From Acanthamoeba sp. SK_2022b (Eukaryota > Discosea > Longamoebia > Acanthamoebidae): a stretch of 64,000 bases of DNA. The notes beneath the pieces are model-generated. The model was not told where the DNA came from. It saw only the letters and a program-made list of their open reading frames with translations, and ran no database searches. The first letter of the stretch is position 1. Each line of letters starts with the position of its first letter. The stretch lies in contig JANDJZ010000023.1 in assembly GCA_027943245.1 (NCBI GenBank), positions 1-64,000 of the forward strand. Direction: 5' to 3'. Below are positions 5,475 to 35,242 of this stretch, piece after piece. Both the position numbers and the translations under genes were made by a program.

Positions 5475-6010
5475 CTACTGTGGCTGCTGCAGCTTGGTCT
5501 GCATCTCTACGATGAACCTGCGCTTTGCCGCCTGCTTCTTCTGCAAATCTTCGAGATTGGTCTCCAGCTTCTGCAGCTCACCCTGCATTGTTGACAGATG
5601 AATGCTTATTAAAAATTTGCTGGGCAGTGGGGAAGTGTGCAAAATCATGCACATGAGCAACGATTTCACTTATCGAGAAAGTGAGGCGGGTGTGGGTAAT
5701 AATGGAATTAAATCGATAAACGATGGGAGCGGGATGGGCGGGTGGGAACCTGAAGGAAATCAATTCGCTTGCCGACGTTGGAGGCGGCTTCCTTCTTCTC
5801 TTGCTTTACGAGCACCGGGCCGATAAGCTTGTAAATCCGCGCACCCTCGTCATCGTCTGCGATCAGATCGAGCTCCTGCTTCACTAACTCGTTTTCCTTC
5901 ATCTGCGCCACCAGCTGAGCGCGGGTGTTCATCATTTGCTGGCCCTCGTCCTGCATCTTGCGCAGAAGCTTCACCTCTTCCTCGAGCCGCTGAGCTGCTG
6001 CCTGTGACAT
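5475..6010 (-). CDS. PFDN6: Prefoldin subunit 6 (beta-type prefoldin)
   Basis: Two exons, 6010-5750 and 5582-5475, give 122 residues, typical for PFDN6 (about 125-130). The protein is a coiled coil throughout, with two helices flanking a short beta turn. Near residues 42-50 NELVKQELDL and then KLIGPVLVKQ match the beta-prefoldin hairpin, followed by the C-terminal helix with regular Leu/Lys heptads. Prefoldin is the hexameric co-chaperone that delivers unfolded actin and tubulin to the CCT chaperonin in the cytosol. A single 167 bp intron separates the hairpin from the second helix. Confidence 0.9.
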
Positions 6011-6095
6011 CTTTGTTGTTCGATTTCAATTTGATTTTGTTATGTTTTGTTTTTTCCTTTGTTTTATTTGGTGTTGGAAACTGCTCAGCCTGCAA

Positions 6096-6896: not shown

Positions 6897-9800
6897 CTAC
6901 AGCGAATTGTGGTACGACTGGAGAGTCTCGTAGATGCTCAAGAAGGAGGGACGCTGGCTGGGTCGGTCCACCCAGCATTGCTTCATGAGGGTCGCCAGTA
7001 CCTGTTGTTTCCGTGGGTTGGCCTCGGTGAGCACGCGTGCAGAGCGTGCCAAGAGACCACAGCGTACCAGCGGGCAAGCAGAGGTGATCGGAAGGGTCTG
7101 TTGGTCCTGCGACACTTGGAAGGCCACCATGAGATCGTCAACGCCCTCGAACGGCTCCCTTCGCTCCCACAACTCCCACAGTAGTACGCCTGGGTGGGGT
7201 CGGTCGCCGTAAGCAGCCGACACTCGTTTGGTCAATACTGCCACACGTACCGAACGACCAAGCATCGCTGCCTTCCGAGTATTTGTGCATCATGGCATCG
7301 GGGCTCATGTATCTTACTGCGCAGTCGTGTGCCATGATGAGTGTGCGCACAATTAAGGACATCTGAGATGGGGCGGTGGCTCACCTGGACCGATGAAGGA
7401 CGATGTGCCCGCTGTGTGCGTGTAGACACTCTCCTTGGGCTTCATGTGGCAGAAGGCAAAGTCGTTGACGTAGGCCCGCAAGCCGTCGCCCAGCAGGATG
7501 TTGCGCGACGAGATGCGGGAGTGGAGCACGCCCTCCCGGTGCAGATGCAAAATGCCGGCGGCGGCCTCCATGGCGATTTTGATGACCTGCTTCCACGTCA
7601 GGTCGAGCCTCGTCTTCCCGCGCAACGCCCCCTCCAGGCTTCCGTATCTGTAGTACTGGGTGACGATACACACATTCGGCAGCGTACTGGTAACACACGC
7701 GCGTGTGTTGTCATTAGCACGTTCGGAGTCAAAGCAGACCCAGGCCGAATTGAAACGGAGTTGAAACGAGGCCTGGTGTGCCAAGTGAGCAGGGAGGAGG
7801 GCAAGTCACCAGCAGGCGCCGATGAAGGAGGCCAGCGAGGGGTGGTGCGATAGGACGTGCAAGGCCGCGGCCTCCTTCTTGAAGAGATCCACCACCTTTT
7901 CGTCCATGTCGTCTTCTTCGAGCTTCTTCACCGCCACCAACGCCCCGCGCCACCGAGCCTATACATCCACGTCACTCGGCGCTGAGCGCTATCCCTCTTC
8001 CCCATTTCATCGCAGGCTAGGCGCCCACGCACGTTCGCACACGAGCGTCTCACTCACGGGAGGGGGGCGTACCAGGTAGACAGTGCCAAGCTGGCCAGAG
8101 CCGAGCTTCTCGAGGATTTGAAACTCGTTGAACATGATCTCGCGGAACTTCATCTTGGCCTTGGCCTCCTCGACGGTGAGCCTCTCCTGCTCGCTGATGC
8201 CGCCGGACGAGCCGCGCATGGACGTCGTCACAATCACGGACGGCGACGACGTCGAGGAAGCCTCCTTGGGCGTCGGGGCGTAGGCCGGGTTGATGGGGCA
8301 CGTCGCCCTCTGGCCGACGCTGGCCGTAACGTGCTGCGAAGACGAAGGCGTGCTCTCCACATAGCCGGCGGAGAAGTTGAAGGCGGGCGATGGCGACGTA
8401 GGGGAAGACGACGACGGCGAGGTGTTGGTGTAGCCGGCGGATCCCGAGGAGGACGATGAGGACGGCGGAGAAGTGTTGGTGTAGCCAGAGGCACCGCCGG
8501 CCGGTTGGCTGACCCTGGTGACCGCCTCGGGCGTCGGGGTGGCGTTGACGTAGGAGCCAAACGACGGCATGAACGAGGCGAGGACGCCTTGCGCGGAGGG
8601 AAGAAGCGCGGACTCGAGGGGAGACGTCTGGCCCAGGTCACGCGCGGAAAAGAGGGGAGACGACGGCCCCGTCATCATCTGCTCCATGCCGTGCGCTGAA
8701 AAGAGGGGAGACGACGGCCCCGTCATCATCTGCTCCATGACGTGCGCGGAAAAGAGGGGAGACGACGCCCCCGTCATCGACGCGAAGACCGCATCGGGAT
8801 TCGTGAAGAGATTGAACGTGCCAGAACCGGACCTGTCCCCGGCCCCGGCCCCGCCACTCCTGAGGCTTGGGATCGTTGGACGCGCGCCGAGCGTCTGATC
8901 GCGCGGTAGGAAGTGGTCCGTCGTAGTGGCTGGCGCAGACGGTGGCCCGTGCAGAAAGGGCACATGCTGCACCCTCTTCCCGTCGGGGCCCGTCGACGTG
9001 ATGATCACCGATCCTCTCGGAGGGCCTGCATCGCTGGCCGAGGAGCGAGACCCGGCGCCAGGAGAGGTGGTGCGCGAGGGTCGCGGATTGAAGCCCTTCG
9101 GAATATTCATCAGGTTGTAGTACCTGCACGTGCAGTGGAGCGCTTCAGCGTTCTCCGCCCAGAGGCATGATGAGTTTGATGGGGCGAGCGATGGGACGAG
9201 CACCTCGTGGCGATGTCGGAGAGCTGCTCGATGAAGGAGGGAGGAATGAGCGTGGAGTAGACCGGATTGGTGTTGTACTGGGACAGGAATTGGTTCATCT
9301 GCTCCTCGAATATGGGGCCCTTGGCTCTCAACACGTCGAGGTTTTGCGCATGCACGGCCTGATGCATAGGAGTTAAAAACAAAGGCAGAAGAACATCGGA
9401 GAGAGCCGTGACAGGTCTTTGGCGAGAACGCACGTTTTGGACGGCCATCAGCTCGGACTTGGACCTCATGTTGGTAATGGCCTTCTTGACCTCGTCCTCG
9501 CGCAGAATGGAGGGGGCTTCTCGTTCGTATCTCGTCAGCAGCGCCTGCACGTACACGCACCCAACGATGTATCAAGCCGACGACTCCCGGCGACGACCTC
9601 GACCTCGATCCGATGTCATGAAGAGGGGGGAGGCGCACCTCGGATTCATCGAGAAAGAGGCGAGCAGCCGCCTCCTTTCCGTAGATCTGCTTGAACCTCT
9701 GTATCTGCGCCTTGAACGCAGCGCCGTGCTGCGAGATCTTGGGACCGTCTCGAACGTTGAGCGCCTGCGTAGCAGCCACACACGTGTCAATGAGCTCGGT

Positions 9801-10890
9801 CAATCGTACGGTTGTGGCTTCATTCGACAGGCATGCGTGGACGCGCGCGGTGGATACCATGCTGAGTCGTGTCATGTCGTCCTGCTGTCGTATCTTGGCG
9901 ATCTCCTCCTTCACCTTGCTTGCGCGCAGTATGTTGTCGCCCTCCCTGTGAAGTCTAGACAGGAGTCGCTGCGCTTCGTCGAGGAACGAGCCCGCCAGCG
10001 GTTCCTGCATGCCCACGAGAAGGGCAAGTGCCGCCGGCCATTAGCACGCACCGGTGCGCAAGATCGACGAGCGGGCCAGAGGTACGTACCCCACCGTACT
10101 GTTGCGTGAAATCCCTGATCTCTTTCTCGAAGTTGTCGCCGTGTGTCTTGACTCCCTGCGCATCGCTCTGGCCCAGCGCCTGCAGTGGTTCGACAAACCC
10201 GAATGAGCTCACTGCTCCACTCAAGCTGATGACGACGACAACGACAACAATTCAACAATTCATCGAGCCGCGCATGCGCCGTACCCCTTCCAGCTTGAAC
10301 CAGGAGCCCTGTGACTTGATCCTCAGTATGGCCTTCTTCACTTGGTCTGCTCGTTGGAGTTGCGGCAACTCGGTCTCGTACTGCCTCAACAGGTCCTGCC
10401 GTCACACACGAGAGCACATTGTGATGAGATGACGTCACGCGTGGAATGCGCAAGCGATGAGGGTCGCTCCTCATGTGCTTGTGGGAGTGGACGTACTCGG
10501 GCCTCCTTCATAAGGGACTGTACGGATGGATTGTGCGTCGCGCCATGCTCCTTCTCAAAGTCGGCAATCTGTTTGGCAAAGACCGGTCCGTTCTCTTGCA
10601 CCTTGCGCAGGTCGCGCTGTAGCAGGCCCTGCCATTTGCGAGGGCAAGGTTTTGTTTTGTTGCAGTGAATTTTATCAATTATTATTGTTGTACAACAAGA
10701 AACAATTTTGTTTCCGTAGTTGTGGGAAAGAGCGAAAGCGGGGGGGGGGCTTTGTAGGCACCATGCGGAGCTGATACATAGGACCGTTGACGGCCTTGAT
10801 CTTCATCACCTCGCGCTGTAGCTCCTGCACAGACGTATTGCTCTTGAGAGTTGTACCACATACAAGCTCAGTGACCTGTCTTCGTACCAT
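6897..10890 (-). CDS. Tandem-repeat TKL-type pseudokinase (paralogue A)
   Basis: Fourteen exons: 10890-10762, 10628-10497, 10395-10285, 10179-10090, 10004-9858, 9764-9639, 9544-9434, 9358-9204, 9123-8073, 7958-7810, 7686-7385, 7316-7251, 7189-7068 and 7001-6897; total 931 residues. Residues 1-385 hold four to five degenerate copies of a ~79-residue helical repeat, each built from two exons. Residues about 385-650 are Ser/Pro/Thr-rich low complexity and include three copies of a 17-residue unit beginning MTGPSSPLF. The C-terminal kinase fold keeps the glycine loop (GSGQLG) and the VAVKK lysine (about 695). However, HRD is HSR (789-791) and DFG is DFA (809-811), so catalysis is not expected. 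The start at 10890 could instead be part of an unseen upstream exon, because ATG|GTACGA there is also a good donor. It shares a ~400 bp divergent spacer with paralogue B. Confidence 0.82.
8630..8790 (-). repeat. Three tandem copies of a 51 bp coding unit in paralogue A
   Basis: Three near-identical units translate to MTG(A/P)SSPLFSA plus a variable end. They lie in the low-complexity linker between the helical repeats and the pseudokinase domain. The near-perfect DNA identity suggests recent slippage or unequal exchange. Confidence 0.85.
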
Positions 10891-11291
10891 TTTGAGGAGG
10901 CCGAACAGATCGATTCCTCTGTCGTCCCTTCACACCACAAGCGGCCCGCTCAAAGAAAGAATGTTTTGCATATATTTTTTTCCACAATTTCTGGTTCTTT
11001 TCCGTCAGAGGCAACCACGCGTGGTGCACGGCCCTGGCTTGCCGCAGAGCTCCGACAGCCACAGCTTGTGTTCCCTGGCGCCTGCCGAGGGGAGCCTGCA
11101 GTTTGCTGGCGTGGCCTGGCGTGCATTACCACCAGCCCGACGTAAGGAGAGTACCACTGCCCGACTCAAGGTAAGCCTTTGATTTGCTATTGGTGCAAAG
11201 CTCGCCGTGATTGAATTCCAGGTACTGCTTTCCCTTCCTACTTCGTACTTCCCCGCCGTAGTACGGGCACACAACAAAAGGCCCAAGCAAC
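10891..11291. promoter_or_regulatory. Shared divergent promoter region of the two repeat-pseudokinases
   Basis: The 401 bp between the two divergent start codons must carry both promoters and leaders unless unseen 5' exons exist. It includes an AT-rich patch around 10965-10985. I found no canonical TATA box and no obvious mirror-image duplication. Confidence 0.5.
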
Positions 11292-14200
11292 ATGTCGGAG
11301 TGGCAAACGGCAGCGCAGCGCCTCGATTCCTATTCTCTCAGTTTGGTGCGTCGCGTTCCTTTGGTTCAGTTACGTTTTTTAAAAAATTAAAAAAAAGATT
11401 TATCATCGCGTTTATAGGATTTATTGACGGCCACAAGGCCCCTCTTTTTCTAACCAAAAAATAAAACCAAACCAGGCGTTAAGCCAACAGAACTTCGAGG
11501 CTGCACAACGCGAGGGACAACGGTTCGAGAACGAGTTCGGCATGTTCCAAACCCGCTTCGGCCACCTGCAGGACTCAGAACCGGCTGTGGGCAAGTTCAT
11601 GCAGGAATGTAACAACATGCTGCTCAAGTACCATGCCGAGATGCCCGCGCTCGAGCGCCAGCACGAAGCCACCACAGCTATCTCCAGCTTTCGCTCCGAT
11701 AACGTCCTGCACAACATCCAGCGGGTATTCTATCTCCACCACTGCCCACCGAGCGTTACGGAGCTTAATCCTTCGTTCTTTGATCGCTTTCGTTCTTTTT
11801 TGACCAGGCGATCAGCCAAAAGCTCGAGGCCGATATGACGCGTTACGGCGAAGGTTTTGTCGCCAAGGCCGAGGAGTTCCTCTTCGCCTACAGTTTGTAC
11901 GAGGATATCCCCCAAATGGCCACCTTCATCAGGGAGGTCAAGCAAACCGTCGCTTCGTTCCACAGGTATGGTGACCTTCCCATGAGTTGTGAACCCTTCG
12001 GACGGTGAGATTCAAACTCTTCTCCCTCCCCCCAAAGCGTCTACCCGCAAGTACTTCACGAGTCTGAAGTGCGCAAAGCGGTCAGCAACATCAAATCTGC
12101 TAACCACATGCACTTCCTCAGCATGGTACGTTACCACACTTGCCGCTCCCTGGCAATTGATAATGCGCGTACTGAGGCGCCTCGCGACTTCCCAGGGTCT
12201 CAACCAAAACCAATCCGACGAGATCTACTCCCATGGCCCAGCCTTTGAGCAGCAGGTCGACCAGTTTGTGGCCACCTACGCCGACTCCCCTTCCCGAGAC
12301 GCTCAAGACTTCATCACCCAAGCACAGGCACTTCCTTTTTTTTTTTTTTTTTTTTTTTTTTGATTGATTTTTTAATGGAGATGTTTAACGGCGGACGCTG
12401 GTGTATCCCTTACACACGCATAGGCTCTGCTCCAGCGCTACCGCACCGAAGGTCCGCTCATTCGCCACGCACATCTCGTCCAGAAGGAGATCAGCAACTT
12501 TAAGGGAGAAAATCACATGTTCAACCTCCAGATGGTACGCCTGCGCTTGCAGCCAGTCTTCGGTCCTCCCATCTGACGCCTACCTTGCCTCTCTTCTTTT
12601 TTTCTTTTAACCAAACCAGGCGCTCAACCAAAGGAACAGCGAGAGGGTCCTCGACTATGGTCCCAAATTTGAAGCACAGCTCGATGAGTTCCTGTCATTG
12701 TACGGATTCGACGAGAAGGCTCGGATATTCGTTGGCGAATGCAAGGTAGCCGCTCCCTCTCAGAGTTGAGAGTGTGGCACTTGTCTCCAACACGTGTGGC
12801 GCAGGCCCTGCTCGACAGGTACCACAAAGAGGGCCCGGCCATCACGTGGGAGGAAGAGGTCCGGCGGACCATCTCTGAGTTACGCAGCAAAAACAACATC
12901 CACAACCTCAGCATGGTATGTGTTGTGCTGGTGCCCCCCCCCCTCGAGGCCGCTTCGCTAGAAGTTTATCGCCTTCGCTATTTTCGAACATTGCTTTCTG
13001 GGCGCAGGGCCTGAACCAAAAGAATGCCGAGCTGGTGAAGATTCACGGGCCAATGGTGGAGGAGCAGCTGTCCCATCTAATCGCCACCTGCGGCAAAAAT
13101 CCAACGAAGGAATACAACTCGACGTTGAAGGAGTGGACCGTACGTCGCCCACTGGTTGCCCTGCTTTGTTGCGATTTGCTGGCATTATTGACACGCGGCC
13201 TGCGTAGGATCTCGTGGCGCGCTACAAGACAGTGGGGCCGGACATCATTCATGAAACTGAAACCAAGGAGGCTATCAGCAGCTTCAAATCGACCAATCAC
13301 ATGCACTTCCTGAGCGTGGTACCCAACCAACTCCAGGAGCACGTCAAATGTCTTTCTTGTCAACAATATGAAATGACGCAGTCCCAACACTATTGAACAT
13401 TGGTTTTGCTCGGACATTTGATGTGCAGGCTCTCACCCAACGAAACTCGGAGCAGCTCGAGCTGCACGGCAAGCATTTCGTTGAGCAGTACCAAGATTTC
13501 ATGTCCCGCTACGAGCATGACAAGTACGCCCAGGCGTTCGTCAAGGAGATCAAGGTTGGCCATTGTTCCCCCATTCGTGACCTCTCCCTTTGTGTTCGGG
13601 ACGCGGTGCAAGCCTCATCACGGTTTCGCTTCTCCAGTCGCTGTGCGACCGCTACCACAAGGAGGGCCCAGGCATCCTTAGAGACGAAGAAGTGAGGCAG
13701 GCCATACGCACAGTCAAGAGCTCCAATCACATGCACTTCCTATCCATGGTACTCCATTCGTGCGTCGGAGATCGTGTGCCCCCCCCACTTACAGGAGAGG
13801 GGTTGGTTTCGTGTGCGCAGTATCTGCAACAACGCAATCAGGAGCAGGTGGCAACGCACGGTCCCCCGTTTGAAGAGGAGTTCAACGACTTTATCGAACG
13901 CTATGGCGAGGACAAGGCTGCGGCTCAGTTTGTGAGGGAAGGCAAAGTACGCACCAACCCCCAACCCAACCCAACCCAACCCAACCCAACCCAACCCAAC
14001 CCAACCCAACCCAACCCAACCCAACCCAACCCAACCCAACCCAACCCAACCCAACCCATCATCTCTTCGCCCCAGGCCCTCATGGAGAAGTACAAGAAGG
14101 AGGAGCCGGGAATCAAGCGAGAAGATGAGGTGCGGCAGGCCATCTCGGCGATCAGGAGCACCAACCACATGCACTTCCTGTCGATGGTAGTTCCACGCAT

Positions 14201-15869
14201 GATCTTTTATGACCGGCTTACGTGCGCGTGCTGCAGCGCTCAGTAGGATTCACCTCTCTACCTCTCAGGGCCTCACCCAGAGAAACGCTGAAGCCGTGGA
14301 GACGCACGGTCCCAAGCTGAAGGAGCTCTACGAAGACTTCATGGGACACTATGGGCGCGACTCCTCTGCGCAGACCTTCGTACGCGAGATTAAGGTGTCC
14401 CTTCCCTACATTTCCACACGCTCTTCCTTCGACCGTGCCCCCACACAGAAGCGCTGAACCTTGAAAATGGATTACGGCAGGCCCTCGTCGAGCGGTATAA
14501 TAAGGACAGCCCTACCATCGTTCGCGAAGAGGAGGTGAGGAAGGCCATCAGCGATTTCAAGAGCCACAGCGAAACGCATTTCTTGTCGATGGTGCGCGCC
14601 TGTCCTCCTGCACTGTTGCTGGTGGCCCGTCAGTGGCTGACTGATCCACTCACGATATTCGATGACAATTTTCCCGGTGTGACCTTAAGGCCTTGACCCA
14701 AAAGAATGCGCAGAAGATCGAAGAGTACGGACCACGCTTGGAGGAGCGCTTTGCAGAGTTCATGCCCCAGTATGGCGCGGAGTCGACCGCCCAGGCCTTC
14801 GTCAAGGAAACCAAAGTACTTGGCCTTTATCTCCGCCACAAGCAAACAAGCAAACAACTCACATTTTGGTCTAATTCATGATTGTTTGGGGGGCAGAGCT
14901 TGCTAGAGAAGTACAAGCGCGAGGGGCCCGCGATCATTCGACAGACTGAGGTGGAGCAGGCCATCAGAGACCTCAAGGCCAACAATGACATGCATCATCT
15001 CAGCGTGGTGCGCATCTCTCTGACCTTTGTACAAAAAGAACGAAAGCGATAGGAGCTAAAAATTGCTCCCCACCAAAACCTCTGCAGGCTCTCAACCAAA
15101 AGAACGTTGAGCGCGCTGAGGAGTGCGGGGGCCGCTTTGAAGCCCAACTGGCGGCCTTCCTGCAGCACTACAGCAACGACGCCTGCGCCAAAGCCTTCAT
15201 CACCGATGCCCAGGTACCGCTCGAGCGACACCTCTCTCTCCCGCCCGTTCCTCATCTCATCCTCACCCGATGCCGTCCCCTTTCCTTTCCTCCCCAGAAA
15301 CTGCTTTCCCGGTTCCGGGAGATGTGTCCGCCCTGTACCGCGTGCCCGTCCTCGTCAGGTCCCTCCTACCCCGCCCCGTACGCGTCGGGACCGGCCGCCT
15401 ATCCCTGCCCCGACTCGCCCTACGGAGCCCCCTGTGGGGTGCCGCCCGTGTCCAGCGCGGCTCCGCACTATCCGCTCTCGGCTCCGGCGCCCTTCCCGCA
15501 CCACGCCATCCAACAGCAGCAGAGCTACAACCCTGCGCGACCACCGGTCCCGTCGTATGGCCTGCCGTCGCTGCCAACGCAGACAGCCCCCTACTACTCG
15601 CCCCCTGTGGCGGGCCACACGGGAGATCAGCAGTTGCTCGAGTTTCCGGCGCCCATCGCTCAGCAGCAGTACGCCGACGCGTCGCACTACTTCGCCACGC
15701 CCGAGGGGCTCTTCTCGCCCAACGCGCAGCAGCATGCCTACCCCTCCCCAGCGCAGCTGACCCCGCCTACCAGTGCCTTTTACGACCAGCAACAGCCACA
15801 ACTACAGCCATTCCAACCGCCACAGCAGCAGCCGTTCCAACCGCCTCACCAACAGTCATTCCAACATCC

Positions 15870-15904
<35 letters not shown>

Positions 15905-16829
15905 CATGGAATGCTTCGCCTCAGCCCGCTACGTCGATGCCGTCTCCACCCTCCTCTGTCGGCTCGCCTGCGCCGTCTCTCGCGACTCAGCCCAACGTAG
16001 CCCCGTCGCCCGCGCCCTCCGTTGCAACTGGACCGGCGGCCAACGACGAAGGCTACTGCGAGGTGCCGGGCGCGGTGCCGGCGCCTTTCCCGGGGGCACT
16101 GGTGAAGGGCGGCAAGGAGGCCAGCCCCGAGGTCGAGAGCCAGGGCCAGGAGGAGAAACGCAAGTCCGACGAGGACAAGGCCAAGGAGAAGTTCAAAGAG
16201 ATCCGCTACGACGAGCTGCACATCATCTCCAAGATCGGCTCAGGCAGCTACGGCACGGTCTACAAGGTAGACGCTACCTACCCGTTGAGCCTGCGAGAAC
16301 GTAGCAGCAGTGGGACGGGCCTCACACGATCGTGTTATGCAAATGTGCGTGTACAACCATCAGGCGTGGTGGCGCGGAACGATAGTGGCGGTGAAGAAGC
16401 TGGATGACGGCACAGAGATGACCAACGCCATGGTGGAGCTGTTCAAAAAGGAGGCGGCCGCCATGACCCTCCTCTCGCACCACCCTTCCCTGGCCAACTT
16501 CGTGGGCGCCTGCTGGTACGCGCATCAGCCGCGGCATTCGCCATCACCATCACCTTTCCCTTCCCCTCTCATTTCGTCTTGTCGCGTGCACTCGTCGGTT
16601 TTGTGTGTTTGGTATGTGTCGTGGGCAGCGAAATGCCGAACGTGTGCGTGGTGTCACAATACTACCGGTTCGGCAGTCTGGAGAGCGTGCTGCGCGGCCC
16701 CACGCGCGCCGACCTCCCCTGGAAGGCCTTCGTCAAGATGGCCAAGGAGACTGCCGCAGGTATGTGGATCATGTTATTTCCTGGCACACTCTGTGGTCGC
16801 CAACCCGATGAGGCGCATGTGACACAACA

Positions 16830-16904
<75 letters not shown>

Positions 16905-17647
16905 ACACACACACACACCATATATAGGCATCCACCACCTGCACAAGGAGGGCATCCTCCACTCGCGTATCGCGTCGCGCAACATCCTCGTGGGGGACGG
17001 CTGCCGGGCCTACGTCAACGACTTTGCCTTCTGCCACTTCAAGCCCAAGGAGCAGGTCTACGCCCAGAGCGCCACCCAGACCTTCCTCGGTCCCGGTACG
17101 CGCCCGCTCGCTGTCCCCGCAATTATTAAATTGTTTCCATTTTTACAACTTTTTTTTATTTTATGACCGTTGATTGGGCGTTTCGTCACAGTGAGGTACA
17201 TGAGCCCGGAGGCGATGATGCACAAGTTCTCCGAGGGCAGCGATGCCTGGGCCTTTGGTACGCTTTCGCGGGGGTGAGCTGCTGGCGTACTCGATGATGA
17301 CGCGTGTGTGCACAGGCGTGCTATTGTGGGAGCTGTGGGAGAAGAGAGAGCCGTTCGAGGGCGAAGACGAGCTCACTGTTGCCTTCAAGGTGGCGCAGGA
17401 CAAACAGACTCTGCCCATACCGCCCTCGTGTCCTGAGGTGCCTACCTCCCTGTCTGCTGCCGACCTCCCTCTCCTCCTCTCTGGCTTCTTTTGCCCTGGG
17501 CGACGCTGAGCTCGTGTGATGTGGGGGATGTGATGTCGCCAGGTGGTGGCGAAGCTCATGCGGGACTGCTGGCAGGAGCGAGCGAGCCAACGACCCTCCT
17601 TCACCGCCATTTTGGACACCCTGGAGGACTACTTCGCCACGCTCTAG
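11292..17647 (+). CDS. Tandem-repeat TKL-type pseudokinase (paralogue B)
   Basis: Twenty-six exons: 11292-11345, 11476-11724, 11808-11965, 12038-12125, 12196-12327, 12424-12534, 12620-12745, 12805-12915, 13008-13139, 13208-13318, 13429-13554, 13638-13748, 13821-13946, 14076-14186, 14269-14394, 14481-14591, 14690-14815, 14897-15007, 15088-15213, 15298-16266, 16364-16515, 16629-16759, 16928-17095, 17192-17257, 17316-17437 and 17543-17647; total 1352 residues. Residues 19-790 are about ten copies of a ~79-residue helical repeat. Each has half B (about 42 residues; core LNQRNxE, HGP, FVxExK) and half A (37 residues; core RYxxEGPxI, EEVRxAI, NHMHFLSM). A Pro/Gln-rich linker with polyQ follows. The kinase fold retains GSGSYG and K1116, but HRD is HSR (1211-1213) and DFG is DFA (1231-1233): a predicted pseudokinase. 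Exon 5 ends at a GC donor. Confidence 0.9.
12336..12361. repeat. Poly-T tract inside paralogue B intron 5
   Basis: A run of about 26 T on the sense strand, just after the GC donor at 12328. It may act as an extended pyrimidine tract. Confidence 0.9.
13960..14057. repeat. (CCAAC)n pentanucleotide array in paralogue B intron 13
   Basis: About 19 uninterrupted CCAAC units occupy most of the intron between the donor at 13947 and the acceptor at 14075. Although short C-rich arrays can resemble telomeric repeats, this one is intronic and flanked by correctly phased exons. Confidence 0.93.
15780..15905 (+). repeat. Coding CAG/CAA polyglutamine stretch in paralogue B
   Basis: Mixed CAG and CAA codons encode Gln-rich blocks (QPFQPPQQQ and then an 11-Gln run) in the linker before the pseudokinase domain. 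They remain in frame with both flanks. Confidence 0.85.
16830..16918. repeat. (CA)n microsatellite in paralogue B kinase-domain intron
   Basis: A long CA run on the sense strand directly upstream of the acceptor TATATAG at 16927. Confidence 0.95.
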
Positions 17648-17815: not shown

Positions 17816-19495
17816 ATGCTGGCGCCTTCAGATGACAGAGACGAGAGGTCGGGACTGACGGTGCTGGTGACCGGCGGTACTGGCTTCATCGGGTCGCATC
17901 TCTTGCGGCGGCTCGTGCAATTGGAAGATGTGTGCAAGGTCGTGGGTCTCGTGCGTGCATCTAGCAACTACTCTGCTTTTCCCCCAGGCAGGCTTCCTCA
18001 CCCCCTCCTCCTCGCTCACCCAACTTCCCCTAATGGGCCGCCGCCACACTTGCCGAGCCAGACGTCCAAGTGCGCACGGCTGCGCTTGATAGCCCCGCCT
18101 CGCTGGCGGAGGCCGTGAAAGGGGTCGACGTCGTAGTGCACCTCGCCGCCATGATGGACTTCTACCCTCAAAACGTGCCTCCCCCTTCTCCTTTCCTCAT
18201 GAGGCGACGGGAGAGGCTCATGCCAATGGGCCTGCGCCGCTACCGTGTACTACGCAGGTGGCTGCCCTGTACAAGACCAACGTAGAGGGAACCAGGAACC
18301 TCCTCACGGCCTTTGCCGAAGCGAGGAAGGGCAGGGGCACCTTCATCTACATATCAAGCACCGAGAGTAACCAGCACACCCACTTTTCCCCAACGGTGTA
18401 GCGTGTTGATCTGTTGTCTCCTCCGTTACTTGTGCAACTGTCACACTCCACACACACAACTACGTACACACACAGCACTGGGTGGTGTGGAGAAGCCGCC
18501 AGGCGACGAGCAGACCGAGCTGCGACCCGTGTACGAGTACGGGCGGAGCAAGGTCGAAGCGGAGCGGGTGGTGCGCGAAGAGTCCAAGCGCCTGGGAGTT
18601 GACCACATCATCCTACGACCCACCGGTATCCACGCGCCTCCACCACCGCCAGACACATGCTTTTCTGGACCCGATCTGACCGTGTGCCCACACACCGCGT
18701 GCGCCGTGTGCCAGGCGTGCTGGGGCCGGGCGACTTCTTCACCATCTACGAGCTGATGGAGATGATCAACTCGGGCCTGCTCTGCTTCATCCCCGGCAGC
18801 GGACAAGCCCAGCTCATGTACACCCACGTCGACGGTGCGTGTCTGTCCTGCCCCTCCCTCCCATCAACTACTCGCGAATTGCGTCATCTGACCAGCGCCG
18901 CTCGCCTGTCGTGCGTCTGCGCAGATGTCGTGCAGGGGATCGTGAGAGCGATCGCGAAGAGGGAGGAGTGCAGGGGCGAGACGTTCATTCTGTGCCCTGA
19001 CGACGGCCTCACGTACCAGCGGTGGATCGAGGTCATCAGCGAGGAGCTGGGACGGGCGAGGCCCCTCCTCCACCTGCCCTTCCCCGTGGTCAAGCTCGCC
19101 ACCGCCCTCCTGGCGCCCATCATGAACCGAGGCAAGCAGCGTACCTTCATGTACCAGGCCTCTACCGGTTCGTGCCCCCCCCCATTCATTTATCTTATTT
19201 TTATTTTATTTTATTATTAACTTTAATATTTTAATTGCACAAACAAAACAACACTGCAGTGAGCCGTATGGCGGAGGATAGGACCTATTCCAACGCCAAG
19301 GCGCGCAGGCTGCTCGGGTTCGAGCCCGCGTACGGCCTCGAGGAGGCCATCCGCCAGACCGTGCGGTACAACCTGGACAAGGGCCACCTCGCCCGCCACT
19401 ACGTGTCGCCGGTGATGCTCTACGCCGCCGTGTTCCTCCTCCTGTTCCCCGCCGTGTGGTACCTCCTCGGCCTGGTCGACCCGCACGCGCACTGA
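17816..19495 (+). CDS. Extended SDR, 3-beta-HSD/epimerase-like, C-terminal membrane anchor
   Basis: Exons 17816-17987, 18062-18174, 18258-18366, 18476-18625, 18715-18834, 18925-19167 and 19260-19495 give 380 residues. The NAD-binding motif TGGTGFIG lies near residue 20. HLAAMMDF and ISSTE match strand 4/5 of extended short-chain dehydrogenases, and the active-site pair is YGRSK. The C terminus ends in a hydrophobic segment (about residues 358-374, LYAAVFLLLFPAVWYLLGL), suggesting ER membrane attachment as in sterol 3-beta-HSD/C4-decarboxylase enzymes. Family assignment is strong; a sterol substrate is an inference from the anchor. The first intron uses a GC donor (CAG|GCAGGC). It is convergent with the next gene, with only ~120 bp between stops. 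Confidence 0.88.
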
Positions 19496-32257: not shown

Positions 32258-33525
32258 ATGGCAGATGGGCTAGCTGTGGACGGCGTGTCGGAGCCAGCGC
32301 GTCTGGTCGCGCAATGCTGTGGGTGGATAGCCAACCACACCGAGGTGTTTGATTCGCTGGCAGGCCTGCCCACGGAGCTACGCCAGGCCGTGTTGCTGTG
32401 CCTGTTAGAGCGAGACCTGCTCAACGACCGCACCTTCAGCCTCCTCTTTGCCCCTGAAGGTTACCCCCCCCCTCCCTCACAAATGGCAGCAAATAGAGGA
32501 GGACTGAAAGCGTTGGTGTAGCGGGCTTTGGTAGCTTGAGTCTGGTGGGCTGTGCTGGCCTGAGCGATGTGGGGTTGTGCCGCTTCTTGGACGAATGCCA
32601 CCACTCGCTCACCGAGCTCACCCTCTCCCGCTGCCCGTACTTGCCCCTCCCCTTCCTCCTCGAGAACACAGCGTGATGCACCTCGCCACTTCTCCTACTG
32701 ACTCCTGAGGGGCAGGCAGGTATCGGGACCCTCTCTGCAGCGCGTGGGCCAGTTGTGCACTGGCCTGCGCTCGCTTCGGCTCCATCTCCTCTCTCCCCAC
32801 CTTCAAGAGAGCGACATCGTCGCCCCCTTGTTCGCGTCGGCGGCCCTGTCTGCTCAGCTCACCACGCTCGAACTGAGCGCGTGCCCCTACCTCTCCGACC
32901 TCTCTCTGCATGCCATCGTACGGCCCACCGCCACGCCCATGTGCTGACAGTCGCGGCGAGGCAGTCGTCATCGACCAAAACGCTAACGCTGGTCTCGCCC
33001 GAGCAGACACAACACCTGAACCACTTGGACACGCTCAAGTTGAACCGTAACAAGGGCATCACTCACTGCGGACTCGTCCATCTTGCCACGTATGACGTCA
33101 TCTCCGCCCGAGGACAATCGGCCTGTGCGATGGTGATGACGATGGCGATTGCGATGTGTGCGTGCGCGTGTGCAGATCGGAGGTGGGCGCTCGCCTCACG
33201 CGACTCGAGTGGAACGCCAACTCGCTGCGAACCATTCCTCCAGAGATCGGTCAAATGACCGCCCTCGTCCACCTTTCGGCGTGCTCCAACGAGATCGCCA
33301 GCGTTCCGCCACAGCACGGCCACCCTCCTCCTCCTCCTCCTCTTACCCTGCAAACGATGCCCTCGCCGTTCGTCTGGCTCATCGCTCGCTCTCGTTTCCT
33401 CAGGATCGGAGACCTGAGGAACCTGAGCGATCTGCTGTTGTTCTGCAACGTGATCAGGGAGCTGCCCGATGAGTTGTGCGCGCTTTCCCGCCTGAAGACA
33501 CTTGACCTGAGTGACACCTGGGTAG

Positions 33526-33591
<66 letters not shown>

Positions 33592-35242
33592 GCGTGTTGA
33601 CCGTATCTCTTGCCCCTCCTCTCCTTGGCCAAAGACTACGCAGCTTCCGTCCCGCTTGGGCGACTTACAGAGCCTCGAGAAGCTCTGCTTGGACGAAAGC
33701 GACCTCGAAGCTCTTCCCTCGTCCATCGCCAGGCTGACTCAGCTCACCGTACGTCGAGCTCCTCCTCCTCCTCCTCCTCCTCCAGGCCCTAACATGTCGC
33801 GATGGGGCGGGGGGGTGGCACGCGCGTAGACTCTTTCACTGGGAAGCACTCGGCTGGCTTGCTTTCCTTCGTATTTGTGTGACCTCACCCAGCTCCAGAC
33901 ACTCGACGTCAGCGACCTCGCGCTGGAGCTCCTCCCCGAGGAGATAGGCCGCCTGGTTTCCACCCCCTCCCCGCCCCCCTCCCCCCAATCCCCAATCCTA
34001 TGTTTGTCTGCGCGAGCTGATCCGACCGATGGACAAACGCGAGAGCCATCTCACCGAGTGCGGCCGCAGGTGAATCTCACCAACCTCGACGTGACGGCCA
34101 ATTTCCTGCCGTTTCTCCCCGAGGGCCTGTTTCTCCTGACGAATCTCAAGAAGCTCGGCATCGCTCACAACTCCCTCGTCGACCTGCCCGCGGGTGCGCC
34201 TCTCCTCCTCTTGGGTTTCCATCGGCGCAGTGTTCACCGACGCAAGCTCCCCTCTGGCGGTGATGTCATTGGCGCAGATATCAGCAAGCTGAGCAGCCTG
34301 ACGCTGCTCCCGCTCGAAGGCAACTCTTTCCCAGCAGTGCCGGCCTCACTGACCGCCCTGCGCAAGCTCAAGGTCATCTCGCTGGGCAGCTACGGCGAGG
34401 ACGAGGAGATGGACTGCACCGTGCTCGAGCGGGTCACGGGCGCCCAGGGGGGAGCGGGCGGGCGAGACTCTCCCGCCCCCCACTTCCCCGATCTGCGCGC
34501 CCTGAGCCTGGAGGAGGCCCGGCTGACGACGGTGCCCCCCTTCGTTTGCCGGATGACCGCGCTGGCCGCCCTCTCCCTCGAGAACAACTCGCTCGAGTGC
34601 CTGCCCCCCGAGCTCACGCAGCTGCAGCGGTTGCAGGTACCCCACTACCCCGCACGACTGCCTACTCGCGAGGCCGAGAGGTCCACAACTCACAACCCGT
34701 CGGCAGGCACTCAACCTCGCCTTCAATCCGATGTTGAGCGGGTTTCCCCCCCAAGTCCTCTGTCTCGGCCAACTTACTGAACTGGGGTACGACCTCAGCT
34801 CGTGTGGAAGAGAGCAAGCTCAGCTCGTGTTGGGAGAGGAGGCGTGAGCCTAAAAACACCAACCCGCCAGCCTAGCGTACACGAACCTGCAAGAGTTGCC
34901 CGATGACTTCGTTCGGCTATCGCGTCTGCGCAACCTCTACCTGTGCGGCAACCAATTACGGTACGCTTATCTTTATGTTCTTCTTCTTATTATTACTACA
35001 CAAGGCTCATCATCGTCTTGTCGTCCAACGCATAACATAGGGAGGTGCCCCGGCCACTGCTCGGCACGACCACGCTCGAAAAGGTGGACCTCGCCCAAAA
35101 CCAGGTGGCCAGCGTCGACGAGGACACGCTGGCGGCACTCCTGCTGATGCCGCGCCTCTTCGAGCTCTCCCTGCGAAATAACCCGGTCGGCAACGACCCA
35201 CGGCTCGCCGCCGTGCCGTGCATTCTCGTGTGCGGAGAGTGA
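32258..35242 (+). CDS. Leucine-rich repeat protein
   Basis: Thirteen exons: 32258-32459, 32522-32672, 32716-32917, 33007-33089, 33176-33313, 33404-33521, 33644-33748, 33893-33955, 34070-34193, 34278-34636, 34707-34786, 34871-34960 and 35041-35242; total 638 residues. The first third has irregular, Cys-containing repeats (LSLVGCAGLSDVGL, LELSACPYLSDLSL) resembling the F-box/AMN1-type LRR. From about residue 210 typical Shoc2-like LRRs follow (IPPEIGQMTALVHLSACSNEI, LPSSIARLTQLT). No kinase, TIR or membrane segment. Probably a cytosolic scaffold. The intron after exon 5 uses a GC donor (ACA|GCACGG). Exon boundaries at 32672/32716 are the least secure. Confidence 0.82.
33531..33588. repeat. (CA)n microsatellite in LRR gene intron 6
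   Basis: A pure CA run on the sense strand starting seven bases after the donor at 33522. Confidence 0.95.

What the first reader, a model, noticed from the sequence alone, without database searches (positions are those of the whole stretch)
6897..17647. Head-to-head paralogues combining an unrecognised ~79-residue tandem repeat with a TKL pseudokinase
Two adjacent divergent genes share the same architecture: tandem helical repeats, a low-complexity linker, then a kinase fold. Their kinase-domain introns sit at the same positions and phases (for example after VYL/VYK and after GAC). The repeat (half B with LNQRNxE, HGP and FVxExK; half A with RYxxEGPxI, EEVRxAI and NHMHFLSM) matches no domain I know. 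Paralogue A has four to five copies, B about ten. A scaffold or receptor-like signalling protein is an inference.
Basis: partly seen in the sequence, partly recalled or inferred. Interest (0 to 1): 0.85.

Follow-up and report, generated by a model that had tools for sequence, protein, structure and literature searches.

The report
Helical-repeat pseudokinase scaffold gene pair
Two neighbouring genes of an amoeba-like genome encode proteins that join an undescribed array of helical repeats to a kinase that has probably lost its activity, and one also carries conserved tyrosines of the kind that SH2 proteins grip, so they look like assembly platforms for signalling rather than enzymes.

Summary
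A (minus, 10890-6897, 14 exons, 931 aa) and B (plus, 11292-17647, 26 exons, 1352 aa) are divergent paralogues: helical repeats, linker, kinase domain. Transcript-sized contigs from unnamed sources hold orthologues P0001 and P0070 as uninterrupted frames, so repeats and kinase are one product. The HRD aspartate is arginine in all four proteins; 19 of 19 other full-length kinase domains examined here keep HRD, and the altered loop occurs in this genome only in this pair. No credible family match was found for the repeat; in this genome it was found only here. AlphaFold2 gives a confident unit of 10-, 22- and about 39-residue helices; no solved structure matched at E<=0.001. Repeats are orthologous in order, 10 of 10 and 4 of 4. 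A's seven linker tyrosines are all conserved, three as YxN; B shows no such excess. Best reading: cytosolic pseudokinase scaffolds, A probably with phosphotyrosine docking sites, analogous to but not members of the PEAK family. Function is inferred.

The parts
9204..10890 (-). Gene A exons 1-8: helical repeat region, about 4.5 copies (three complete)
   Evidence: spliced model; HMM domains; orthologous frame P0070; model of P0070
8154..9123 (-). Gene A exon 9, greater part: linker with seven conserved Tyr (Y335, Y336, Y525, Y548, Y565, Y588, Y615); Y525, Y548 and Y565 are YxN in both A and P0070
   Evidence: P0070 linker pLDDT under 50
6897..8153 (-). Gene A exons 9 (end) to 14: pseudokinase domain and stop
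   Evidence: Pfam PK_Tyr_Ser-Thr 177.6 bits; splicing
7500..7523 (-). Gene A altered catalytic loop HSRISSRN (HRD Asp replaced by Arg)
   Evidence: pattern; motif list
11292..11345 (+). Gene B exon 1, tentative start
   Evidence: not covered by P0001
11476..15213 (+). Gene B exons 2-19: ten helical repeat copies (nine complete)
   Evidence: orthologous frame P0001, model of P0001 copies
15298..16185 (+). Gene B exon 20, greater part: Pro/Gln/Tyr-rich linker
   Evidence: 163 identities over 268 aligned residues with P0001
16186..17647 (+). Gene B exons 20 (end) to 26: pseudokinase domain and stop
   Evidence: Pfam PK_Tyr_Ser-Thr 190.2 bits; splicing
16960..16983 (+). Gene B altered catalytic loop HSRIASRN
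   Evidence: pattern; alignment of the B domain to EGFR
10891..11291 (.). 401-bp upstream region shared by the two divergent genes, if the tentative start codons are right
   Evidence: distance between the two tentative start codons

Best explanation
A and B are cytosolic pseudokinase scaffolds. The N-terminal helical array gives a rigid, position-specific binding surface, or an oligomerisation rod. The linker carries short docking motifs; in A these are tyrosines whose YxN context suits SH2 domains once a genuine tyrosine kinase has phosphorylated them. The C-terminal kinase fold keeps the ATP-site lysine, the glycine loop and the DFG aspartate but lacks the catalytic base, so it most likely acts as a binding or allosteric module and not as an enzyme. 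Shown: architecture, linkage of repeats and kinase in one frame, loss of the HRD aspartate, order-preserving conservation of repeats, conservation of linker tyrosines in A. Inferred: absence of activity, phosphorylation, SH2 binding, scaffold role, cytosolic location.
For: Intron-free orthologous frames on contigs of 4086 and 2746 nt, with intron-bearing forms of P0001-type exons in P0146 and P0147. HSR in 4 of 4 pair members against HRD in 19 of 19 other full-length own-genome kinase domains examined, and in the 4 exon-split relatives inspected (three need an inferred splice within HRD). The pattern for HSRI[..]SRN has two hits in 44.9 Mb, both in this pair (its backward-read control has four). 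The kinase is the most conserved part (93.4% for A, 94.9% for B) although its base is lost; repeats 80.0% and 68.4%; linkers 56.2% and 60.8% of aligned residues. A linker: 7 of 7 Tyr conserved against 136 of 324 residues overall, hypergeometric 0.002, a test chosen after seeing the data. 37 SH2 matches in this genome, which are exon pieces and not a gene count; A. castellanii is reported to have 22 PTKs, 12 PTPs and 48 SH2 proteins (PMC4053784, section 'Cellular response' read). Confident helical array. No membrane-like window outside the kinase core.
Against: No binding, phosphorylation or activity data. B's linker tyrosines are not better conserved than the rest (10 of 14, p 0.16) and B's linker has no YxN, so the phosphotyrosine part rests on A alone. 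YxN also occurs in the kinase fold of all four proteins (YVNDF), so the motif itself is not rare. Two of A's seven linker Tyr (Y335, Y336) lie at the helical tail and may be structural, and the two YTN sites may be copies of each other. Only one orthologue of each protein was available. The 19 comparison kinases were picked as the best matches, form largely one clade and include two identical pairs. Some kinases lacking canonical residues are active (WNK is named in PMC4718504, passages seen). The kinase part of the only full-length model was poor.
Confidence: 0.5

Rival explanations
1. Pseudokinase as allosteric partner: the A and B kinase domains bind and switch a related active kinase (for example one of the HRDIAARN kinases of the same genome), with the repeats only serving to bring two molecules together.
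For: The pair groups with active-looking kinases L043, L044 and L046 at 92/90. The kinase domain is the most conserved part although its catalytic Asp is lost.
Against: Nothing shows an interaction; the grouping is moderate, long-branched and uses stitched exon pieces. It does not explain the individually conserved repeats or A's tyrosines.
Confidence: 0.25
2. Still an enzyme: the kinase uses an unusual mechanism without the HRD aspartate and phosphorylates substrates held by the repeats.
For: By eye, the VAVK lysine, a Glu in the alphaC region, the Gly loop, the Asn of the catalytic loop and the Asp of DFA are kept in 4 of 4 proteins (sequences; loop motifs).
Against: The catalytic base is replaced by arginine in all four, and DFG has become DFA. 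Asp166 is described as the catalytic base (PMC4718504, passages seen).
Confidence: 0.1
3. Cytoskeletal or membrane-cortex linker: the array is a spectrin-like rod that spaces the linker and kinase-fold end along actin or the cell cortex, with signalling secondary.
Confidence: 0.12

Closest known systems
PEAK family pseudokinase scaffolds (PEAK1, PEAK2/Pragmin/SgK223, PEAK3)
   Same: Disordered region with a pYxN-type SH2 docking motif ahead of a C-terminal pseudokinase, plus a helical part that could bring molecules together. PMC10279719 passages: N-terminal IDR with SLiMs, YSNL matches the Grb2 SH2 consensus pYxNx, dimerisation through SHED.
   Different: Here the helices form a 79-residue tandem array at the far N-terminus. 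Both proteins end about 7 residues after the kinase profile. No row named PEAK is among those listed (many rows carry no name). Probably convergent.
HRDIAARN kinases of the same genome (L043, L044, L046)
   Same: Closest kinase-domain relatives by tree (92/90); L044 also breaks near VYK and GP|V in its tblastn alignment.
   Different: They keep HRD, across an intron; no repeat matches fall in them.
Spectrin repeats
   Same: Elongated three-helix tandem array; best broad structural alignments.
   Different: 79-83 residues per unit with helices of 10, 22 and 36-39 residues, no conserved Trp, no Pfam spectrin match over its cut-off.
Vertebrate ACK1 (TNK2) and other tyrosine kinases, MLK1/MAP3K9
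   Same: Kinase-domain homology; ACK1 proteins follow P0001, and MLK1 has E 2.1e-46 among solved chains.
   Different: Active kinases (recalled) with other accessory domains; similarity covers about 20% of the B query.

Membership tests
Pseudokinase (protein kinase superfamily) | Complete protein kinase domain | tested here: met
   PF07714 190.2 bits (B, profile 2-258 of 258) and 177.6 bits (A, 2-258 of 258), cut-off 23.1
Pseudokinase (protein kinase superfamily) | Loss of at least one of beta3 Lys, HRD Asp, DFG Asp | tested here: met
   HRD Asp is Arg in A, B, P0001 and P0070; definition from PMC4718504 passages
Pseudokinase (protein kinase superfamily) | No phosphotransfer activity | not testable with these tools
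   needs an assay
TKL group | Groups with TKL and not with tyrosine kinases | tested here: inconclusive
   Outside eight animal-type TK rows at 100/100 and with own-genome kinases, but no curated TKL references; placement open in the first tree
PEAK family | SHED helices flanking the pseudokinase, including C-terminal helices (recalled) | tested here: not met
   Kinase profile ends at residue 1345 of 1352 (B) and 924 of 931 (A); no room for C-terminal SHED helices
PEAK family | IDR with conserved pYxN SH2-docking motif | tested here: met
   A only: Y525, Y548 and Y565 as YxN, also in P0070; B linker has none; phosphorylation untested
Spectrin repeat | Unit of about 106 residues with a conserved Trp (recalled) | tested here: not met
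   Unit 79-83 residues; 3 Trp in the 782 residues of the B repeat region
Spectrin repeat | Spectrin three-helix fold | tested here: inconclusive
Curated repeat families with a Pfam model (ANK, TPR, HEAT, ARM and others) | Pfam match over the curated cut-off | tested here: not met
   None of these families is listed up to E 1 for B, A or for the first member and the tally of A4. Only Nrap_D3 passed a whole-protein cut-off (25.1 against 23.1 bits), with no single stretch passing and a 39-residue best stretch, judged spurious; it stayed under (20.8)
Receptor kinase | Signal peptide or transmembrane helix | tested here: inconclusive
   Hydropathy scan only: the highest windows lie in the kinase core and the first 40 positions peak at 0.46 or less; no dedicated predictor, and first exons uncertain

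The most novel reading that the evidence does not exclude
An amoebozoan lineage has evolved on its own a PEAK-like phosphotyrosine scaffold: a pseudokinase fused to a new class of 79-residue three-helix array, whose A form recruits SH2 adaptors through three YxN sites written by amoeba tyrosine kinases. It would be a non-metazoan hub for the large SH2 repertoire of these amoebae, and its repeat would be a new alpha-solenoid or rod family.
Probability: 0.3. Interest if true: 0.7.

Novelty: new variant of a known kind. Interest (0 to 1): 0.5.

Why it matters
A. castellanii is reported to have an SH2:PTK ratio of about 2:1, the greatest among the eukaryotes compared there, and the authors find the cellular functions of its pTyr circuits difficult to predict (PMC4053784). 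If the window is from such an amoeba, a protein with tyrosines kept fixed in an otherwise fast-changing linker is a concrete, testable docking candidate outside animals. The pair also looks like a case of kinase death before gene duplication (shared HSR plus the tree, by parsimony), and its repeat has no credible match in Pfam or NCBIfam and was not found in the prokaryote and virus collections scanned with two short peptide patterns each, so it may be lineage-restricted.

Tried and rejected
Repeat in other genomes: a profile search of about 5.8 billion proteins found only P0001, P0146 and P0147 at E<=1, and the search with A found P0070. These searches are not exhaustive: and the B search did not list P0070, and the A search did not list P0001, although the two are known relatives; so absence from the lists is weak evidence. 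P0146 is an intron-bearing piece in which three exon stretches are identical to P0001; in P0147 (JGI contig) one checked exon is identical and another, by eye, nearly so. Scans of prokaryote and viral contigs confirmed none (66 and 175 pattern hits, 0 confirmed). The own-genome search used four of B's copies as query, so very divergent copies could be missed.

Weak library hits of the repeat (Nrap_D3, DUF7398, SAM_EPH, Spectrin_SYNE1, a pyruvate kinase model and others) were rejected: short or scattered stretches, under cut-off except the Nrap_D3 total, and mostly not shared between members. A PDB profile hit to an internal virion protein gp14 had E 0.15 and was rejected. Structure searches of the whole P0070 model were dominated by kinases, so four repeats were folded and searched alone.

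Phosphotyrosine reading for B: not supported by conservation. Trees: 14 of 16 chosen database proteins gave rows (P0029 and P0089 did not pass the overlap filter), and 19 of 20 own-genome loci were used (L035 is gene A itself); for five long-branch rows (P0026, P0028, P0054, P0083, P0128) were dropped and four stitched own-genome kinases added. Literature: searches listed no title or abstract start on this repeat or gene pair; papers seen beyond listings: PMC4053784 (passages and one section), PMC10279719 and PMC4718504 (passages).
Full report
What is there. I rebuilt both genes by hand from splice sites. A lies on the minus strand, 10890 to 6897, with 14 exons and 931 codons; B on the plus strand, 11292 to 17647, with 26 exons and 1352 codons. 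All introns are GT-AG except that B exon 5 has a GC donor. The tentative start codons face each other across 401 bp. Each protein has an N-terminal repeat region (A residues 1-333, B 1-782), a linker (A 334-657, B 783-1078) and a kinase domain of 274 residues at the very C-terminus.

The models are confirmed from outside. The protein search with B returned P0001, 1316 aa, on a 4086-nt contig, and the one with A returned P0070, 862 aa, on a 2746-nt contig. Both are uninterrupted reading frames that align through the exon junctions of my models; within repeats and kinase the only gaps are at the N-terminus. The contigs are too short to hold the genes with introns, and intron-bearing versions of P0001-type exons are seen in P0146 (three checked exon stretches identical to P0001) and P0147. 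The first exons are not covered, and the true start codons stay open.

The repeat. An HMM from eight B copies finds ten domains in B and five in A; A's total score is 180.9 bits against at most 8.7 for 1000 shuffles of its repeat region. The nine full copies of B share 36.7% identity on average (maximum 55.7, 36 pairs), A copies with B copies 29.2%. Between the two sources, copy i of B matches copy i of P0001 best in 10 of 10 cases (60-79%) and copy i of A matches copy i of P0070 best in 4 of 4 (68-87%). The arrays are therefore old, stable in number and individually constrained, which suits a surface with position-specific contacts better than a spacer (inference). In this genome a search with four B copies gave 21 matches up to E 10, all in this gene pair.

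The kinase. All four proteins read HSRI[AS]SRN where kinases read HRDxxxxN, and DFA for DFG. The HMMER alignment of the B domain to EGFR puts the arginine on the catalytic aspartate. The beta3 lysine (VAVKK) and the glycine loop are kept (sequences). Of the 19 other full-length kinase domains taken from this genome, 19 have HRD and DFG; they are the best-matching ones, largely one clade, and include two identical pairs. The four exon-split relatives inspected also have HRD, three of them across an intron. A DNA pattern for the altered loop occurs twice in 44.9 Mb, in these two genes, against four hits for the pattern read backwards. The tree groups B with P0001 (99/97) and A with P0070 (100/96), so the duplication, and by parsimony the loss of the aspartate, precede the split of the two sources; the pair's nearest relatives are the HRDIAARN kinases L043, L044 and L046 at 92/90, outside eight animal-type tyrosine kinase rows at 100/100, with long branches. 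Yet the kinase is the most conserved domain: 93.4% (A) and 94.9% (B), against 80.0% and 68.4% in the repeats. A kinase without its base kept this tightly is probably used for binding or allostery (inference).

The linker. Linkers align poorly (56.2% and 60.8% of aligned residues, with 123 and 37 gap columns), but in A every tyrosine is kept, 7 of 7, where 136 of 324 residues overall are identical (hypergeometric 0.002; the test was chosen after seeing the alignment). Five of them sit beyond the helical tail, and Y525, Y548 and Y565 are YxN in both A and P0070 (YVN/YIN, YTN, YTN). YxN also occurs in the kinase fold of all four proteins. The consensus of the Grb2 SH2 domain is pYxNx (PMC10279719, passages). 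In B 10 of 14 tyrosines are kept, not more than expected (p 0.16), and there is no YxN in the linker. This genome has 37 SH2 matches, counted exon by exon, and A. castellanii is described with 22 PTKs, 12 PTPs and 48 SH2 proteins (PMC4053784). Whether the window is Acanthamoeba was not established here.

Mechanism. I think the proteins are cytosolic scaffolds. The helical array holds or assembles partners, the linker displays docking motifs, which in A are probably phosphotyrosine sites, and the pseudokinase adds a regulated binding surface. The nearest functional analogue is the PEAK family, which joins an SH2-docking disordered region to a dimerising pseudokinase. Membership is not claimed: the C-terminal dimerising helices of PEAK proteins (recalled) have no room here, since both proteins end about seven residues after the kinase profile. 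A receptor is unlikely on a hydropathy scan.

Verdict. The repeat appears to be an undescribed, possibly lineage-restricted family; the combination is a new variant of a known kind, the pseudokinase scaffold. The phosphotyrosine reading is a reasoned lead for A only.

Noticed in passing
13963-14057 and 16832-16903: Two introns of gene B hold long simple repeats: a 95-bp (AACCC)n run, telomere-like in look, and a 72-bp (AC)n run; a third holds a 26-base T run at 12336-12361.
   Followed up: no
5708-6025: Minus-strand frame that looks by eye like a prefoldin subunit 6; recalled resemblance, not searched.
   Followed up: no
17816-18118: About 170 bp downstream of gene B's stop a plus-strand gene opens with an NAD-binding epimerase-like motif (VTGGTGFIGSHLL), by eye only.
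   Followed up: no
33096-34777: Plus-strand frames with leucine-rich-repeat-like text (SLGSTRLACFPSYLCDLTQLQTLDVS), by eye only.
   Followed up: no
L044 (G000:C1038:33000-36500), L043, L046: Related kinases with an intron inside the HRD motif, between Arg and Asp or within the Asp codon; possible catalytically intact sisters of the pair.
   Followed up: partly
G000:C913: Five SH2 matches on one contig (starts 12451, 15634, 26708, 41270, 88720), a possible SH2 gene cluster.
   Followed up: no
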